In this document: positions 5,889 to 11,829 of the stretch, piece by piece
Position numbering within the stretch: position 1 is the first letter of the stretch
Layout of the letters: every line of letters starts with the position of its first letter
NCBI GenBank assembly: GCA_025981625.1
Contig: JAICXF010000027.1
Location: 1-23,811 of the forward strand
Source of the DNA: Sphingomonas sp.
GTDB taxonomy: Bacteria; Pseudomonadota; Alphaproteobacteria; Sphingomonadales; Sphingomonadaceae
Length of the DNA stretch: 23,811 nt
Direction of reading: 5' to 3'
Translations under genes and position numbers: made by a program
Notes under the pieces: generated by a model
Told to the model about the DNA's origin: nothing
Seen by the model: only the letters and a program-made list of their open reading frames with translations
Databases searched by the model: none

Positions 5889-6116
5889 TTATTGAAACTC
5901 AACGAGCCTTGCTGATCTAATAGTCCCATCCGAGGCTCTGATGACCGAGTCTCGCGCCGGCGGCGCGCCAAGGTTGTCCCCGGCAGCGAAGCTGATCCGG
6001 ACCGCTTCGACGATCCGAATTGTCGCGGTCGCCTGCGCCGTCGCGGAGGTCGGACTCGACGGCGGAGCCGGAACGCTCGCGAGCGCAACTGCGGCGGCGA
6101 TGAGAAGCATAGGCAT
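5889..6116 (-). CDS. Small exported hypothetical protein
   Basis: A short protein of 75 residues from ATG 6116 (81 from GTG 6134). It begins with a hydrophobic signal-like segment (MLLIAAAVALASVPAPPSSP), continues with TATIRIVEAVRISFAAGD and ends SARLVEFQ. I do not recognise a family; the sequence after the signal segment weakly recalls small sphingomonad periplasmic proteins. GGGTGAG lies 13 bases upstream of ATG 6116, slightly far for a ribosome site. GTG 6134 has no clear site, so the start is uncertain. The stop lies one base beyond the stop of the convergent zinc-ribbon gene, with no terminator between them. Codon use looks like its neighbours. Confidence 0.6.
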   Translation of the reverse strand: MPMLLIAAAVALASVPAPPSSPTSATAQATATIRIVEAVRISFAAGDNLGAPPARDSVIRASDGTIRSARLVEFQ

Positions 6117-6248
6117 GAGCGCTAACGCACTCACCCGCCAATGGTAAACGTCTTGTTAGGGATTGTGCCATTGTGGAGCGAATTCGCCACCCACCGACCG
6201 GCATTGCGCGCTCCGGACGCCTTTGCTAGGGGCCGCGCCTTGCCAGTA

Positions 6249-6273: not shown

Positions 6274-6281
6274 ATGACGTG

Positions 6282-6368
6282 CGGTCGTGGCGGAACTGGT
6301 AGACGCGCAGCGTTGAGGTCGCTGTGGCCGAAAGGCCGTGGAAGTTCGAGTCTTCTCGACCGCACCAG
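6282..6368 (+). tRNA. tRNA-Leu (anticodon GAG)
   Basis: An 87-base class II tRNA. The acceptor stem GCGGTCG (6282-6288) pairs perfectly with CGACCGC (6358-6364), followed by discriminator A and an encoded CCA (6366-6368). The anticodon stem CAGCG/CGCTG encloses the loop TTGAGGT, with anticodon GAG at 6316-6318, which reads CUC and CUU leucine codons. The long variable arm (TGGCCGAAAGGCCG region) is typical of leucine tRNAs, and the T arm contains TTCGAGT. It stands alone, 13 bases after the hairpin at 6249-6273, and is convergent with the usher-like gene that ends at 6430. Confidence 0.97.
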
Positions 6369-6429: not shown

Positions 6430-9159
6430 TTACCTGCTCTTTGGATGCTCCGGCGCGCTGATGTCCGTCGCTGCGGCAATCTGCTGTGCGGGACGCGCTG
6501 TTAGCGATCCGAGCCGTACAACGGGCTTTTCCGGTGTGACGTCGAGGCTGACGCCAAGATTGACGGCGATCTTCGCGGCCGTCGCCGCGGCCGTGCTCAC
6601 GCGCAATCGATAGTGTCCATAAGCGACGCGTTCGAACAGGAAGAAGCCGTCGAAGTCGGTTCGGGCGGTCCCGACGGTCTTTCCGGTCGTGTCGACCAGC
6701 TCGAGGTCGACACCTTCAAAGCCGAGTTCGCCACTCTTCATCAGCGCGCCCTCCACGTCGCCGCCACCGACGAGGCCGATTTCGACGTCCGCGGCAATGC
6801 CTGGCCGCGGTACGACGACCTGGATCGCCTTTTTGGGCGTGAGCATCGGGTCGTCGAGGCTGGTGGTGTCGACGCCGACCGGGACCGGGACATAGGCAGT
6901 GAGGCCGCCGATCGTCGCCGAGCCACTCGAGTCCGTCTTGCGCTCGGACTGGCGGGCGCCCGTCGTGATCAGCGCACCTTTCTCGAGCGGCTCGCCAGGA
7001 TCACGAATGCCGTTGTCGTTGAGGTCGCGATAGACGATCGCGTGGACCATTCCGCCGGCGGCGAGCGGCTGGCGCGACAAAGTGACGCCATGGCGTGGGT
7101 CAAGCGAGAAATTGAGGTTGAACCCAATCGCGAGATCTCCGTTGCTCGCAGCCTCGCCGGTCAGCGCCACCGCCATCGAGTTAAAGCGGAGGATATGGGA
7201 GAAGCGCGCCCGGGCGCGGTGCTCGACCGAATCGTAGGTCAGCACGGCTTCCCAGTCGCTGCGGTCGGAAGAAGACCAGTAAGCCGAGATTTCCGCGTCC
7301 CGGAACCGCGGCCTCGGCTCAATGTCGAAATCGGTCGAGCCCCGGACCCGCACACGGCCGATGTGGCCGCTGCCAAGCATACCAACCATGAGTTCGGCCG
7401 GGGCCGATTGCCCGACCGGTACCGTTTGCTTGCGATAGCTCATCTCGCTGCCGAGGTTGAACCGCCCCAGGCTCGCCGAAAGGCGTGCGGCAGCCTCGAG
7501 AAGCCGGGATCCGTCAACGCGCCTGGCGAAATGAGCTTCGACGTGGGCCGGGATGCTCTGCGTGCCGACCTTCAACGGCGCGTCGAGGGAGACCCGCGCT
7601 TCCTTGGAGCTGACTTCCTCGCCGCCCTGCAAATGAAAATCGTTCGCGATAAGTGCGTCGATATTGACGTACACCGGCCCGACCTTGCCGAGCATCTGCG
7701 CATGCGCAGCGGTTCCCCCATTCGACTCGCGCGCCGCGGTGACGGCAAACAGCGCGCCGCCGATCGAGCGTCGCACCGTTCCCTCGACGAATGTCAGGCG
7801 CTCGTCGCCAATGAGCATGGCTCGAGCCAGCACGCCGACCGACGTGCGGGCATCGAGCCCATGTTCCACCGACACCGCCGCTTGCGCCTTTGGCAGCCCG
7901 AGCTCGTCGGGAGGTTTTTCGAGCATGACGAGGTCCCGCCCAGGCTGATTGGCGCCCAGCCAGTACCAGGTCTTTCCCTTTGGCACGTCGTCCTGGCCGA
8001 CGTTGTAGATTTCATCGCGCGTTCGCACCTGGCCCTGGGGCCCGTAGAGCACGACATGAATGCGGTTTTCGCCATAAAGAAGCTGAACGTCGTCAAAGAC
8101 ATAGCGCTGCGAACCGTCTGACCTGGCGAAGCCGAGCAACTCTCCATTACGGTAGAGTTCAGCTTCCCATCCGGAGGGCAGATCGCCCTCGACGCGCGTG
8201 TGATCGAACGCTGTGCGCGCCGTCAGCGGCCGATTGGTGACCACGAAGCCCCGTCCAGCGGCAAGCGAGCCGGCCAGGCTGCCGTCGAATCCCTCGACAT
8301 CGCCCACACCGAAATGTGTGGCCTTCAACGGCCCGAGCAGATGCCCGTCCGGGTCCGAGCGGAAGGCGCGGAGCCGGAGCAGGCTCGGCTTGCCGGTCGA
8401 GGTCGTCGTAATCTGGGCATCGTAGGACATCTTGGCGATTTCACCCGCGGCATATACCGACGCTTCGCGATCCACCTTGACGCCATCTCGGGCGCGATAG
8501 GTCACCCCGCCGCTGACCACGAAGTCGAGCGCCGGCGCGCGCCACATCCGGTACGGAACGCGCACCTGCGGTAGGCTCTTGAGATCGAAGCTCGCGTGGT
8601 GGATCCGCGCCGCGCGCTTCTGCCGCTCCATTTCCAGCTCGATCGGCAGCTTCTCGTCCGAGGACAGCACCAGGACGGAGCCGGAAGTGACCGGCTTCAC
8701 GCCGATTCCGAGCCAGCGCGACAACGCCGAGGCCTGGACGCACCAGCCCTCGGGAATTTCGCGGATGACCCCTGGAGCGATCGCCTCGGTCGATTTGACG
8801 CCATAGCTAACGTGGCCCGTCCGATAATCGATCGCGAGGCGGTTGCTTTCCTTGAACGCCCACCCGGTCGCCGTCTTCGCGCTCAAGTCGACGCGGATCG
8901 GTAGGTTCAGGGCAGTCAGAAAGTCGCCTAAGACGACACAGGTGCCTTCGGGAGCATTGTAGGCCCGCACCGTATCGCCGAGCCGCAGCTGGTGAATGGT
9001 GACGTCGAGGACGAATTGCTCATCGGGATCGGCTGTCCAGGCGACGGCCGCAGCGGGCGCCCGTGCGGGTGCGGGTGCGGGTGCGCCACGGGCGAGGCCG
9101 GTTGCGCACAACGCCAGCAATGCTGCTGCCTTGCGCAGCCAGCGACGGCCGCCCGCCAT
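6430..9159 (-). CDS. Usher-like outer-membrane protein with SdrD-B/CnaB-like C-terminus
   Basis: A 909-residue exported protein, probably the outer-membrane pore of a chaperone-usher-like pilus. A signal peptide spans about residues 1-26. The next 150 residues resemble a copper-amine-oxidase-N-like domain, with C74 and C140 able to form a disulfide. The middle is rich in alternating beta strands, as in a barrel. It includes an usher-plug-like stretch at about 327-345 (LPSGWEAELYRNGELLGFA) and LLYGENRIHVVLYGPQGQ. At about 710-724 is YRDLNDNGIRDPGEP, an SdrD-B-like calcium-loop motif. From about 798 a CnaB/carboxypeptidase-regulatory-like Ig domain follows (GKTVGTARTDFDGFFLFERV). It starts 29 bases after the chaperone stop, so the two are probably cotranscribed. 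It lacks an obvious classical PapC N-terminal domain, so 'usher' is an inference from plug-like sequence and context. Confidence 0.82.
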   Translation of the reverse strand: MAGGRRWLRKAAALLALCATGLARGAPAPAPARAPAAAVAWTADPDEQFVLDVTIHQLRLGDTVRAYNAPEGTCVVLGDFLTALNLPIRVDLSAKTATGWAFKESNRLAIDYRTGHVSYGVKSTEAIAPGVIREIPEGWCVQASALSRWLGIGVKPVTSGSVLVLSSDEKLPIELEMERQKRAARIHHASFDLKSLPQVRVPYRMWRAPALDFVVSGGVTYRARDGVKVDREASVYAAGEIAKMSYDAQITTTSTGKPSLLRLRAFRSDPDGHLLGPLKATHFGVGDVEGFDGSLAGSLAAGRGFVVTNRPLTARTAFDHTRVEGDLPSGWEAELYRNGELLGFARSDGSQRYVFDDVQLLYGENRIHVVLYGPQGQVRTRDEIYNVGQDDVPKGKTWYWLGANQPGRDLVMLEKPPDELGLPKAQAAVSVEHGLDARTSVGVLARAMLIGDERLTFVEGTVRRSIGGALFAVTAARESNGGTAAHAQMLGKVGPVYVNIDALIANDFHLQGGEEVSSKEARVSLDAPLKVGTQSIPAHVEAHFARRVDGSRLLEAAARLSASLGRFNLGSEMSYRKQTVPVGQSAPAELMVGMLGSGHIGRVRVRGSTDFDIEPRPRFRDAEISAYWSSSDRSDWEAVLTYDSVEHRARARFSHILRFNSMAVALTGEAASNGDLAIGFNLNFSLDPRHGVTLSRQPLAAGGMVHAIVYRDLNDNGIRDPGEPLEKGALITTGARQSERKTDSSGSATIGGLTAYVPVPVGVDTTSLDDPMLTPKKAIQVVVPRPGIAADVEIGLVGGGDVEGALMKSGELGFEGVDLELVDTTGKTVGTARTDFDGFFLFERVAYGHYRLRVSTAAATAAKIAVNLGVSLDVTPEKPVVRLGSLTARPAQQIAAATDISAPEHPKSR
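9063..9086. repeat. Four tandem 6-bp repeats inside the usher-like gene
   Basis: GTGCGG is repeated four times (the last copy ends in C) just after the signal-peptide codons. On the coding strand it gives the Ala-Pro run APAPAPARAPA. Since the unit is six bases, slippage would change the length of the linker without shifting the frame. Confidence 0.75.
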
Positions 9160-9188
9160 CGGACGCGTCCCGCGCTACCCGCCCAGCT

Positions 9189-10016
9189 CTAGCGCAGCAC
9201 CGCCTGGGTTTCGGCGAGGAGCTGGTTCCCGTCGTCGAATGCCTCGACATACTGGACCGTCACGGGGCCGGCGATGGTGGCCTTATAAGCATCCGCAACC
9301 GCCACGCTGACGTGACGCTTGCCGACTTCGGTGTACACGGCAATTCCCTTCGCAAGCGCGACGGGCTGCTTCACGCCGGGCTTCAGCACGCGCACTTCGC
9401 CATAGGTCGATCGCGTTCCCTGCCGCGCGAGATCCAGCGAAACGCGCGGACCCGCGGGTGTCGTCTCCAGATGAACGTTGCTGATTGCCGCCGTCGCCTG
9501 GAGGTTGCCGAGACGAACGATGACCGGGATGGTCACCCCGTAAATGGGCGTGAGCTTGAACTGCACGCCCTTCGGCGCCTCGCCAGCCGGCTGGACCACC
9601 GGGGTCGCGGGAGGAATTGCGCGGAACAGCATGTGGACACGATATTCCCCGTCGGGGAGCCCCTGCGGAGCGCGCGCGGCAATCCGGATCGCCTGCGGCT
9701 CGTGGGGCGGGAGAGTGACCTTGCGGGGTGTATAGACGATCATGTCCTGCGCCTTCAGGTCGGCGTCGGTGGGTGTGGCCACGTCGACCAGGTCGCCATT
9801 CTCGTTCATCCGGCGGAACTCGATCGAGACGCGGTAGGTCGCGGGTTCGTCGCCGATGTTGTTGAGAACGACTTCGGCGCCCTTGCGGCCGTCGAGCACG
9901 ATGCGGGTCGGAGCGACGAGCAGGTCGCCCACGCCGGCGCTGGCGCTCGAAGGCAAAGCGATGAACGACGCTGCCGAGACGCACGCGGCGGCGATGGACC
10001 TGGTCCAGAAACTCAT
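9189..10016 (-). CDS. PapD-like periplasmic pilus chaperone
   Basis: A 275-residue exported protein that should fold and cap the DUF4402 subunits in the periplasm by donor-strand complementation. The signal peptide is about residues 1-27 (MSFWTRSIAAACVSAASF, then SSASA). The N-terminal Ig-like domain follows the PapD pattern: LLVAPTRIVLDGRKGAEVVLNN, ATYRVSIEFRRM, then VTLPPHEPQAIRIAAR and GEYRVHMLFRAIPP. KLTPIYGVTIPVIVR leads into the second Ig domain. It is somewhat longer than the usual 220-250 residues. The start ATG 10016 has GGGGA about ten bases upstream. It sits between the DUF4402 genes and the usher-like gene on the same strand, 29 bases before the latter. The 107-base gap upstream contains two hairpins. 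Confidence 0.9.
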   Translation of the reverse strand: MSFWTRSIAAACVSAASFIALPSSASAGVGDLLVAPTRIVLDGRKGAEVVLNNIGDEPATYRVSIEFRRMNENGDLVDVATPTDADLKAQDMIVYTPRKVTLPPHEPQAIRIAARAPQGLPDGEYRVHMLFRAIPPATPVVQPAGEAPKGVQFKLTPIYGVTIPVIVRLGNLQATAAISNVHLETTPAGPRVSLDLARQGTRSTYGEVRVLKPGVKQPVALAKGIAVYTEVGKRHVSVAVADAYKATIAGPVTVQYVEAFDDGNQLLAETQAVLR

Positions 10017-10034
10017 GACGGCGATTCCCCACTT

Positions 10035-10050
10035 GTCCCCGGCTGGGGAC
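10035..10050 (-). promoter_or_regulatory. Hairpin just upstream of chaperone ribosome site
   Basis: A perfect inverted repeat of GTCCCC and GGGGAC around a 4-base loop, ending five bases before the GGGGA ribosome site of the chaperone gene. In the transcript the CCCC arm could pair either with its own partner or with the ribosome site, so it may influence chaperone translation. No T-tract follows, so it is not a standard terminator. Confidence 0.45.
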
Positions 10051-10074
10051 CATCGCCCGAGTTTTGCTCCAGAA

Positions 10075-10095
10075 TGGTTGATATTCAGTCAACCA
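10075..10095 (-). promoter_or_regulatory. Inverted repeat between DUF4402 gene and chaperone gene
   Basis: TGGTTGA (10075-10081) and TCAACCA (10089-10095) are perfect 7-base arms around a 7-base loop, 28 bases after the stop of the upstream subunit gene. No T-tract follows. It may be an mRNA-processing or stabilising hairpin, as found between pilin and downstream genes in some pilus operons, or a DNA operator. Confidence 0.45.
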
Positions 10096-10123
10096 TGACC
10101 GGAAACCAGTCCGTTTCGACCGA

Positions 10124-10639
10124 TCAATAGTCCACGGTCACGTTGAATGTACCTACATAGGTCCCGGCTACCGTGCTGGAGTTCACGGTCACCGAGCCAC
10201 CGATGCTGAAGTTCGACCCTGGAAAACCGGAGTTCGCCAGGACAATCGACTTTGGCGCGTCGGTCGTCAGGGTCAGCGTCTGCGTCGAATCGTTCTGATT
10301 CACCATCGTCACGTTCGGTGCGCTGATCTGAACCGACTGCTGCTTCGATCCCTGAACATTGTACTGAGCGACCGTCGTTGCGCCCGAGCAGGTTAGATTA
10401 CCGCTGGCGCAGCTCAGGACGCCCGCCTGGGAGAGCGACACGGTGGCGTTGCTCCACACACCGGGTCCAAGGGTCACCGTGCCAAGGTTGAGATCCTGGA
10501 TTTTCGCAATGACCAGAGGCTTGACGTTGTTGGCGGTGACCTGCGCGTTGATTGTCGCGGCGGAGCAGGGAGGAACGCTGCACAAGGCGACAAGCGCCGC
10601 CGCCGGTCCGCACCAGTATCTTGCCTTTCGCGAGCTCAA
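10124..10639 (-). CDS. DUF4402 exported protein, putative pilus subunit (third)
   Basis: A 171-residue secreted protein of the DUF4402 family. The signal peptide ends near residue 28 (ALCSVPPCSA, then ATINAQ). The mature part opens with the family pattern VKPLVIAKIQDLNLGTVTLG and continues with LSQAGVLSCASGNLTCSGA (two Cys that may form a disulfide). It ends in SNFSIGGSVTV and TYVGTFNVTVDY, alternating hydrophobic strands like the terminal strand of a chaperone-capped subunit. The start is TTG at 10639, the only usable start after the in-frame stop at 10655-10657; GAGG precedes it by seven bases. It lies 15 bases after the preceding DUF4402 gene and shares its plan, so the two look like a tandem duplication that has diverged. 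The subunit role is inferred from the chaperone and usher-like neighbours. Confidence 0.88.
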   Translation of the reverse strand: MSSRKARYWCGPAAALVALCSVPPCSAATINAQVTANNVKPLVIAKIQDLNLGTVTLGPGVWSNATVSLSQAGVLSCASGNLTCSGATTVAQYNVQGSKQQSVQISAPNVTMVNQNDSTQTLTLTTDAPKSIVLANSGFPGSNFSIGGSVTVNSSTVAGTYVGTFNVTVDY

Positions 10640-10654
10640 GTCCGTGCCTCGAGC

Positions 10655-11167
10655 TTACTGATAATCGGCGGTGACGGTGAAGGTGCCGGTGTACACACCG
10701 TCCGGCGTGGTCGAAGCGAGCGTGATTGATCCGCCGATCGCGAAAGTAACGCCCGTCGTCGAACCGCTGGCGCCAAGGTTGACGGTTGCGGGCGCGCTCG
10801 GAGTGAAGGCCAAGGTGCTGGGACCGGTCAGATTGAAGCCGGGCGAGCTGATCGTCACGGTCGCGTTGTTGGTCCCGACCAGCGTGTACTTGGCCGGCTG
10901 TGATGCACCGGTGCAGGTGAGAAGGACGCCCGGATTGCTGCCGCAGGTCAGGACACCGGCCTGACTGATCGACAGCACTTCGTTGGTGAAGCTGGCGCCG
11001 GTCAGCACAATCGTGCCGAAGTCGAGATCCTGGACCCTCGAAATCGTCAGCGGCTTGAAGATCTTGGCGGTCGCGGTGGCCTGCGTCGCGGGACTCACGG
11101 CGCCAGCCGGGCCCGCCGCCACGATGAGCAGCGCAGCCGCAGCCGCCGTTGCAAGAAGTCGTGTCAT
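10655..11167 (-). CDS. DUF4402 exported protein, putative pilus subunit (second)
   Basis: A 170-residue secreted DUF4402 protein. The signal peptide MTRLLATAAAAALLIVAA ends at about AGPAGA. The mature protein begins TQATATAKIFKPLTISRVQD, then LDFGTIVLTGASF and LSISQAGVLTCGSNPGVLLTC (two Cys). It ends VTFAIGGSITL and DGVYTGTFTVTADYQ. I chose ATG 11167, which has TGGGGAC upstream and begins the signal peptide; an upstream GTG at 11221 would add 18 residues unlike a signal peptide. The 137-base gap upstream (11168-11304) is the largest in the cluster and carries an inverted repeat, so this is the likely first gene of a transcript running on through the third DUF4402 gene, chaperone and usher-like gene. 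Confidence 0.9.
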   Translation of the reverse strand: MTRLLATAAAAALLIVAAGPAGAVSPATQATATAKIFKPLTISRVQDLDFGTIVLTGASFTNEVLSISQAGVLTCGSNPGVLLTCTGASQPAKYTLVGTNNATVTISSPGFNLTGPSTLAFTPSAPATVNLGASGSTTGVTFAIGGSITLASTTPDGVYTGTFTVTADYQ

Positions 11168-11225
11168 CGGGTCCCCACTCGATCTGGCAAGCCCCGCGCA
11201 AAGCGGGAATTGTGTCACCATCGCA

Positions 11226-11267
11226 TTAACCAGAACCGCTTACGGCTTCGCTCAATCTTATGGTTAA
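11226..11267. promoter_or_regulatory. Inverted TTAACCA/TGGTTAA pair upstream of DUF4402 gene
   Basis: TTAACCA (11226-11232) and TGGTTAA (11261-11267) are perfect 7-base inverted arms, 28 bases apart, about 60-100 bases upstream of the DUF4402 start at 11167. Read on the minus strand, the second arm gives TTAACCAT, which matches a short motif described for the alphaproteobacterial cell-cycle regulator CtrA. The regulator assignment is a guess. Confidence 0.45.
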
Positions 11268-11304
11268 CGGCGCCTTAGGATTCGGTCCGGTCCGGAGCAG
11301 TGGT

Positions 11305-11829
11305 TCAGAGATATTCGACGGTGATCGGCAGATCGCCGCGATACTGGCCATCCGAATCGCCGCTGACGAGCAGCCGTCCCCCGAAACGGAAGCTGAGGTT
11401 GCCGGCCGCGTCGAGCCTTGGCGCAGGCGGCAAATCACTCGTGACGTCATCGAGCGTAATTCGTCCGCCGGAGAGCGAATAGAGCTCGATTCGGCGCGGG
11501 AGGTCGACCCGAAGGGCACGATTCGCCGCGCCATGGACCGTCACTGTCCCGACGGTGGCGCGTGGCCCGACGGCGACGACCGCGCCCTCGCTGCTGTTGA
11601 CCCCATCCGGCCGGATGGTCGCCGCCCCGCTTCCCGCTCCGGAAAGGACGAGCCGGTCGAAGCTGAGCGAGGTTTCGATCTGAAGCTGCACATCGCCGTC
11701 TGCGCTGGCAATCGGCAGTTGCGTGGTCGGCGCGTCGCACAAGCGGCACTGCGCCAGGAGCGGAGGCGCCGATCCAGCTGTCGCAACCACCGCCACGGCG
11801 ATTCCGACGAGGTGCTTGAGAGGTTTCAC
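11305..11829 (-). CDS. DUF4402-like exported protein, putative minor or tip subunit (first)
   Basis: A 174-residue secreted protein. The signal peptide is about residues 1-26 (MKPLKHLVGIAVAVVATAGS, then PPLLA). The mature N-terminus carries QCRLCDAP, a CxxC pair the other two subunits lack. SLSFDRLVLSGAGSGAATI corresponds to the LDFGTIVL block of DUF4402, and the C-terminus (LSFRFGGRLLVSGDSDGQYR, then GDLPITVEYL) matches the family's end. The start is GTG 11829 with no strong ribosome site. It is separated from the other DUF4402 genes by 137 bases, so it may be on its own transcript or at the head of a long one. It is divergent from the penicillin-binding protein gene. Its divergence from the other two suggests a distinct role, such as tip, anchor or terminator subunit; this is inference. 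Confidence 0.82.
   Translation of the reverse strand: MKPLKHLVGIAVAVVATAGSAPPLLAQCRLCDAPTTQLPIASADGDVQLQIETSLSFDRLVLSGAGSGAATIRPDGVNSSEGAVVAVGPRATVGTVTVHGAANRALRVDLPRRIELYSLSGGRITLDDVTSDLPPAPRLDAAGNLSFRFGGRLLVSGDSDGQYRGDLPITVEYL

What the first reader, a model, noticed from the sequence alone, without database searches (positions are those of the whole stretch)
6430..11829. Non-classical chaperone/usher-like secretion cluster with DUF4402 subunits
Seen: on one strand, three exported DUF4402 or DUF4402-like proteins, a PapD-like chaperone and a 909-residue usher-like outer-membrane protein, in the order subunit-subunit-subunit-chaperone-pore. The subunits end in alternating hydrophobic strands (GTFTVTADYQ, GTFNVTVDY, LPITVEYL) and two have a Cys pair. 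Known: classical chaperone-usher pili use Ig-like subunits lacking one strand. Inference: this is a divergent pilus or surface-fibre system in which DUF4402 proteins are the subunits. DUF4402 has no well-described function, so the assignment would be new for it.
Basis: partly seen in the sequence, partly recalled or inferred. Interest (0 to 1): 0.78.

Follow-up and report, generated by a model that had tools for sequence, protein, structure and literature searches.

The report
Divergent chaperone-usher pilus of DUF4402 subunits
A relative of Sphingomonas carries a gene set that most likely builds a hair-like surface fibre by the known chaperone-usher route, but with an outer-membrane gate and building blocks (DUF4402 proteins) that standard family models do not recognise as such, which gives a likely job to a protein family of unknown function.

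Summary
In detail: three exported DUF4402 proteins, a PapD-like chaperone and a 909-aa outer-membrane protein lie on one strand (11829 to 6430). The 909-aa protein has no Pfam usher hit, yet its AlphaFold model matches FimD/PapC far above other barrels. A model of two neighbouring subunits read as one chain places the N-terminal extension of subunit 3 in the missing-strand position of subunit 2 (moderate confidence), as in donor-strand exchange; best matches are CfaB/CfaE and Csu pilins. DUF4402 and this usher occur in the same 19 of 118 sampled genomes of the order. The chaperone keeps the arginine typical of non-classical chaperones. Whether this is a separate clade or a deep branch of the alternative pathway is open. 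New variant of a known kind; fibre formation is not shown.

The parts
11305..11829 (-). sub1: DUF4402 subunit of the CxxC class; candidate tip subunit
   Evidence: Pfam DUF4402 75.6 bits; CRLC after the signal peptide; no alternating donor-strand pattern (score -1.48 against 3.24 and 4.14 for sub2 and sub3). Tip role is inference.
11737..11748 (-). CRLC motif of sub1 (residues 28-31), at or near the mature N terminus
   Evidence: sequence; C[RLQ]LC found once each in the window and 25 loci
10655..11221 (-). sub2: DUF4402 subunit (likely start ATG 11167)
   Evidence: Pfam DUF4402 61.1 bits; Ig-like fold lacking one strand, completed in the model by sub3's extension
10661..10699 (-). last strand of sub2 (residues 175-187), long in the model where a donor is present
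   Evidence: DSSP of model m74eaebc1314b; coordinates checked
10124..10639 (-). sub3: DUF4402 subunit (TTG start)
   Evidence: Pfam DUF4402 70.6 bits
10523..10558 (-). predicted donor strand of sub3 (residues 28-39; model residues 222-233)
   Evidence: strand E222-233, block mean pLDDT 62 (221-230) and 80 (231-240); matches to self- or donor-complemented pilins run to model residue 232-235; coordinates checked
9189..10016 (-). periplasmic PapD-like chaperone of non-classical type (P97, R126, R202, Y228)
   Evidence: PapD_N 21.7 bits, just under the cut-off of 23; R126 pairs with EcpB Arg89 in a weak profile alignment; P97 20 of 20, R126 18, R202 18, Y228 18 of 20
6430..9159 (-). outer-membrane usher, 909 aa; SdrD_B-like C-terminal domain at residues 808-860
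5889..6134 (-). 81-aa exported small protein kept downstream of the usher in close relatives; link to the pilus not shown
   Evidence: its mature part shows no significant similarity to DUF4402

Best explanation
A non-classical chaperone-usher pathway that exports and polymerises DUF4402 pilins into a surface fibre. Subunits enter the periplasm by signal peptides; the PapD-like chaperone holds each by lending a strand to its incomplete Ig fold and by anchoring its C terminus (R126, probably with R202 and Y228); the usher takes the complexes, and the N-terminal extension of each incoming subunit (alternating small hydrophobic residues, A-x-A-x-A-x-I) replaces the chaperone strand in the subunit before it; the fibre leaves through the usher barrel. 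Sub2 and sub3 can both give and accept a strand and would form the shaft. Sub1 lacks the giving strand and carries CxxC in its place, so it can only sit at the far end: a candidate tip. Shown by computation: gene set and its conservation, usher fold, incomplete pilin fold with strand donation in the model, conserved non-classical chaperone residues. Inferred: chaperone-subunit binding, fibre formation, tip role, adhesion.
Confidence: 0.86

Rival explanations
1. It is simply a deep branch of the known alternative (alpha, Mat/Ecp- and CFA/I-like) chaperone-usher pathway, not a separate clade.
For: The usher profile aligns better with EcpC (E 2.8e-4, C-terminal part only) than with FimD (0.14); pilin model best matches are CFA/I entries; two relatives bear the automated name Mat/Ecp fimbriae major subunit; three loci (L034, L036, L038) have the order chaperone-subunit-subunit-usher, the CFA/I order as recalled.
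Against: No TcfC or CooC_C hit in the window usher nor among the families matched by 19 ushers of the family, both present in EcpC; the match to EcpC is weak (41% probability, 155 columns); Csu (archaic) pilins rank close to the Cfa ones.
Confidence: 0.4
2. The usher exports DUF4402 proteins that form a short or amorphous adhesive coat, not a pilus.
For: Single-domain subunits only, no two-domain adhesin in the window; some chaperone-usher systems make thin or capsule-like coats (general knowledge).
Against: Sub2 and sub3 both have the donor-strand pattern and the acceptor fold needed for a linear polymer; the fold search lists subunits of fibre-forming pili first.
Confidence: 0.2
3. DUF4402 proteins are autonomous secreted Ig-like proteins and their closeness to a chaperone and pore is only shared secretion or conserved gene order.
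For: The cluster sits in a conserved core region (PBP1A, zinc-ribbon protein, FtsE, FtsX), so close relatives inherit the order; many DUF4402 genes lie away from the usher.
Against: The association holds in loci titled Nitrospinaceae, Elusimicrobium, Gemmatimonadales and Alteromonadaceae; in the order sample no genome has DUF4402 over cut-off without the usher; fold incomplete without a donor.
Confidence: 0.05

Closest known systems
Alternative (alpha) chaperone-usher pathway: CFA/I and E. coli common pilus (EcpA-E)
   Same: Non-classical chaperone arginine (EcpB Arg89 paired with R126 here); pilin model closest to CFA/I entries; usher profile nearer EcpC than FimD.
   Different: No TcfC/CooC_C usher domains, no MatB-type pilin, no EcpB_C in the chaperone by Pfam; different subunit family; subunits before the chaperone in 34 of 40 loci.
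Archaic (sigma) chaperone-usher pathway: Csu pili of Acinetobacter
   Different: Subunits hit DUF4402 and no spore-coat-U model; the usher lacks the Pfam Usher domain.
Classical chaperone-usher pili: type 1 (FimA-D) and P (PapA-D)
   Same: Usher barrel with inner and C-terminal domains as in FimD/PapC; PapD-like chaperone; donor strand from the next subunit.
   Different: No Usher, PapC_N or PapC_C hit; chaperone of the non-classical type.

Membership tests
chaperone-usher superfamily | outer-membrane usher: large barrel with plug and C-terminal domains | tested here: met
chaperone-usher superfamily | PapD-like two-domain chaperone next to the usher | tested here: met
   13 of 20 chaperones match PapD_N at E up to 1, best 2.6e-8 (window 21.7 bits, under the cut-off of 23); superfamily proline = P97, 20 of 20; 39 of 40 loci. 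No structure predicted for it.
chaperone-usher superfamily | pilins with an incomplete Ig fold completed by the N-terminal extension of the next subunit | tested here: met
   two-subunit model only, donated strand at moderate confidence
chaperone-usher superfamily | surface fibre made | not testable with these tools
   needs microscopy
classical pathway | Pfam Usher / PapC_N / PapC_C domains in the usher | tested here: not met
   none in the window usher at E up to 1; Usher weak in 2 of 19, best 0.02; FimD hits all three
non-classical (archaic or alternative) chaperones | conserved arginine that anchors the subunit C terminus (CsuC and EcpB Arg89) | tested here: met
   R126 pairs with EcpB precursor residue 109, 29 residues after the conserved proline in both (numbering from passages of PMC4654587); 18 of 20. 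The profile alignment is weak (4.9%).
non-classical (archaic or alternative) chaperones | Arg and Tyr anchor in domain 2 (CsuC R174/Y196, EcpB R148/Y169, CfaA R154/Y182) | tested here: inconclusive
   R202 and Y228 conserved 18 of 20 each with spacing 26 against 21-28 in the three known chaperones; not aligned residue by residue
alternative (alpha) pathway | usher with TcfC and CooC_C domains | tested here: not met
   absent at E up to 1; present in EcpC
archaic (sigma) pathway | spore-coat-U type pilins | tested here: not met
   no such hit at E up to 1 for the three subunits; that archaic pilins are of this family is recalled
DUF4402 (PF14352) | match over the curated cut-off | tested here: met
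   75.6, 61.1 and 70.6 bits against 25.2

The most novel reading that the evidence does not exclude
A separate, so far unrecognised clade of the chaperone-usher superfamily, spread over several phyla, with DUF4402 as its pilin family. In sphingomonads it works as a split system: one chaperone-usher pair serves subunit genes placed at two or three distant loci (at the usher, beside PBP1A, and as a pair beside an ABC ATPase), and the fibre is capped by a subunit whose donor strand is replaced by an N-terminal CxxC that could bind metal or form a disulphide at the tip.
Probability: 0.4. Interest if true: 0.66.

Novelty: new variant of a known kind. Interest (0 to 1): 0.52.

Why it matters
It gives a mechanism-level role (donor-strand-exchange pilin) to a Pfam domain of unknown function and shows that current usher models miss a set of ushers, which now bear names such as 'hypothetical protein' or 'collagen binding domain-containing protein'. 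Surveys that count pili by the Pfam Usher model would miss them in sphingomonads and other groups. The tip and split-locus ideas can be tested directly.

Tried and rejected
Sequence search of usher and subunits against PDB sequences: no usher or pilin found, only SdrD-, NOMO- and similar domains for the usher and chance matches for the subunit profile. The chaperone profile found a WxL-interacting protein first (E 0.003), then PapD (0.08) and FimC (0.25); the single sequence found nothing useful. NCBIfam: nothing useful. Profile comparison of DUF4402 with EcpA and FimA: no relation at sequence level. Relation of the 81-aa small protein to DUF4402: first hits may come partly from signal peptides; with the mature part alone the best subunit hit has E 0.3, so the idea of a donor-strand-only terminator is not supported. 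L067 looked like a 471-aa two-domain adhesin, but its frame overlaps a gene on the other strand and a start with signal peptide lies at residue 285: dropped. Sigma-70 promoters: none found; six terminator-like sites against 4.3 expected. First two-subunit alignment (A7) put the single subunits on the second half and was replaced by A8 and A9. E-values come from profiles built on the same loci and are inflated; the loci are other stretches, mostly of other genomes (the genomes of L004 and L009 recur). Literature searches were seen as listings only and 57 found nothing; I read passages of one paper, PMC4654587.

Full report
What is there. On the minus strand between 11829 and 6430 five genes follow one another: three DUF4402 proteins, a PapD-like chaperone and a 909-aa protein. 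The chaperone and the last gene are 29 bases apart. No whole genome is held for the window, so it is probably a metagenome contig; its nearest relatives are Sphingomicrobium and Sphingomonas. The cluster lies between a PBP1A-type gene (Transgly plus Transpeptidase) and a zinc-ribbon protein followed by FtsE-like and FtsX-like genes (gene names by recall from those domains).

Donor strand in the family. Of 159 DUF4402-like proteins of 140-300 aa (the window's three and those of the loci), 144 had a locatable strand-A motif (15 dropped; some are visibly out of register and were kept). In the 118 without a C[RLQ]LC motif the segment before strand A alternates (median score 2.84, 70% over 1; shuffled segments about 0, 27% over 1); in the 26 with the motif it does not (median 0.35, 23% over 1; Mann-Whitney p 1.4e-5, relatedness not corrected). 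The window's sub1 is of the second kind (-1.48), sub2 and sub3 of the first (3.24, 4.14). The window and 25 loci have one such protein each. A pilin that can accept but not donate can only be the first exported, so sub1 is a candidate tip; this is inference. In L088 and L037 a longer protein with a C-terminal DUF4402 domain lies behind the usher gene, the place of the tip adhesin in other systems (recalled).

The chaperone is of the non-classical type. [quoted passage not shown] The profile alignment with EcpB (weak, probability 4.9%, E 0.008) pairs P97 with EcpB Pro60 and R126 with Arg89 (precursor residues 80 and 109; a 20-residue signal peptide is my inference from the paper's numbering). 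Proline and arginine are 29 residues apart in both. Among 20 diverse chaperones P97 is kept in 20, R126 in 18, R202 in 18, Y228 in 18.

Neighbourhoods. A scan of one genome per species gave 40 usher loci, mostly Sphingomonadales but also titled Nitrospinaceae, Oleiphilus, Alteromonadaceae, Psychromonas, Elusimicrobium and Gemmatimonadales. 39 of 40 have chaperone and DUF4402-like genes near the usher; L017 is cut by its contig; 34 of 40 have subunits before the chaperone and then the usher. Pfam DUF4402 is found in 34 of the 37 genomes searched (I gave 37 of the 40 loci); in the three others the subunits are seen only by my own profile, which was built partly from them. Evenly drawn samples around G004, itself a carrier: order, 118 genomes, 19 with a full-length usher and 19 with DUF4402 over cut-off, the same genomes (a twentieth DUF4402 match is under cut-off; 12 further genomes match the usher profile only in its C-terminal domain, positions 779-879); class, 142 genomes, 5 with DUF4402 over cut-off, all among the 12 with an usher match under E 1e-30, so 7 of those 12 have no Pfam DUF4402 hit; phylum, 299 genomes, 6 with DUF4402 over cut-off, 5 of them among the 6 with a full-length usher (four of these five were already in the order sample); the sixth has DUF4402 next to a chaperone and an 831-aa protein that aligns with the usher profile over 500 columns, E 6.5e-9; G538 has the usher without a DUF4402 hit. 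In all, 54 of 299 match the usher profile somewhere, 48 of them only in part. Fisher p-values are not corrected for relatedness. Of the usher stretches from the class sample without a Pfam DUF4402 hit, L091, L092 and L098 have DUF4402-like genes and a chaperone by profile (L098 and L094 are two contigs of one genome); L093, L095, L096 and L097 showed no chaperone and no subunit at E 1e-5, L095 being a short contig with a weak subunit match (E 1e-3) and L097 a 160-aa usher fragment.

Split subunit loci. In 15 of the 19 order-sample genomes with the usher there are further DUF4402 genes with no usher in the stretch fetched around them (one, L048, lies at a contig end and is doubtful); each of the 19 genomes has one full-length usher match. 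Two kinds recur: a single gene near PBP1A (7 proteins, 5 of them with CxxC in the first 75 residues) and genes beside an FtsE-like ABC ATPase gene (23 proteins in 13 loci, ten of them pairs; labelled by distance, one ATPase checked by Pfam). Since no sampled genome of the order has DUF4402 over cut-off without the usher, these probably use the same usher; this is inference.

Place among known systems. By fold and chaperone residues it works like a non-classical chaperone-usher pathway. Membership in the classical, alternative and archaic groups as defined by Pfam domains was tested and not met; profile comparison leans weakly to EcpC (E 2.8e-4) over FimD (0.14). Automated JGI names already of 120 listed relatives 'Mat/Ecp fimbriae major subunit', and source names for the chaperone include 'P pilus assembly chaperone PapD' and 'fimbrial biogenesis chaperone', so the idea is not wholly unannounced; the word DUF4402 occurs in no paper of the open PMC library held (nothing else was searched).

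Noticed in passing
window 5889-6134 (-): Exported 81-aa protein with conserved A-x-A-T-V-R-I-V and C-terminal LIEFQ, between usher and zinc-ribbon gene in close relatives. In the order sample found in 4 of 118 genomes, all among the 19 with the usher, but it may just follow one clade.
   Followed up: partly
window 6281-6367 (+): tRNA-Leu (GAG) on the opposite strand, just downstream of the usher gene.
   Followed up: no
L026 (Sphingomonas daechungensis), also L019: In L026 the PBP1A, chaperone, usher and subunit genes of this region are all split into separate frames, which looks more like sequencing indels than gene decay.
   Followed up: no
P0109: An usher 74% identical to the window's is labelled Thermoleophilaceae (Actinomycetota, recalled) MAG; likely a misbinned sphingomonad contig.
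   Followed up: no
L088:6744-7736, L037:10950-11882, L066:8123-9211: Longer proteins of 330, 310 and 362 aa with a DUF4402 domain: at the C terminus in the first two, which follow the usher gene, and at the N terminus (25-165) in the third.
   Followed up: partly
L049, L054, L056, L061, L063, L067, L071, L073, L076, L078, L083, L085, L089: DUF4402 genes away from the usher, mostly pairs, sit beside an FtsE-like ABC ATPase gene on the opposite strand (ATPase checked by Pfam in L089 only).
   Followed up: partly
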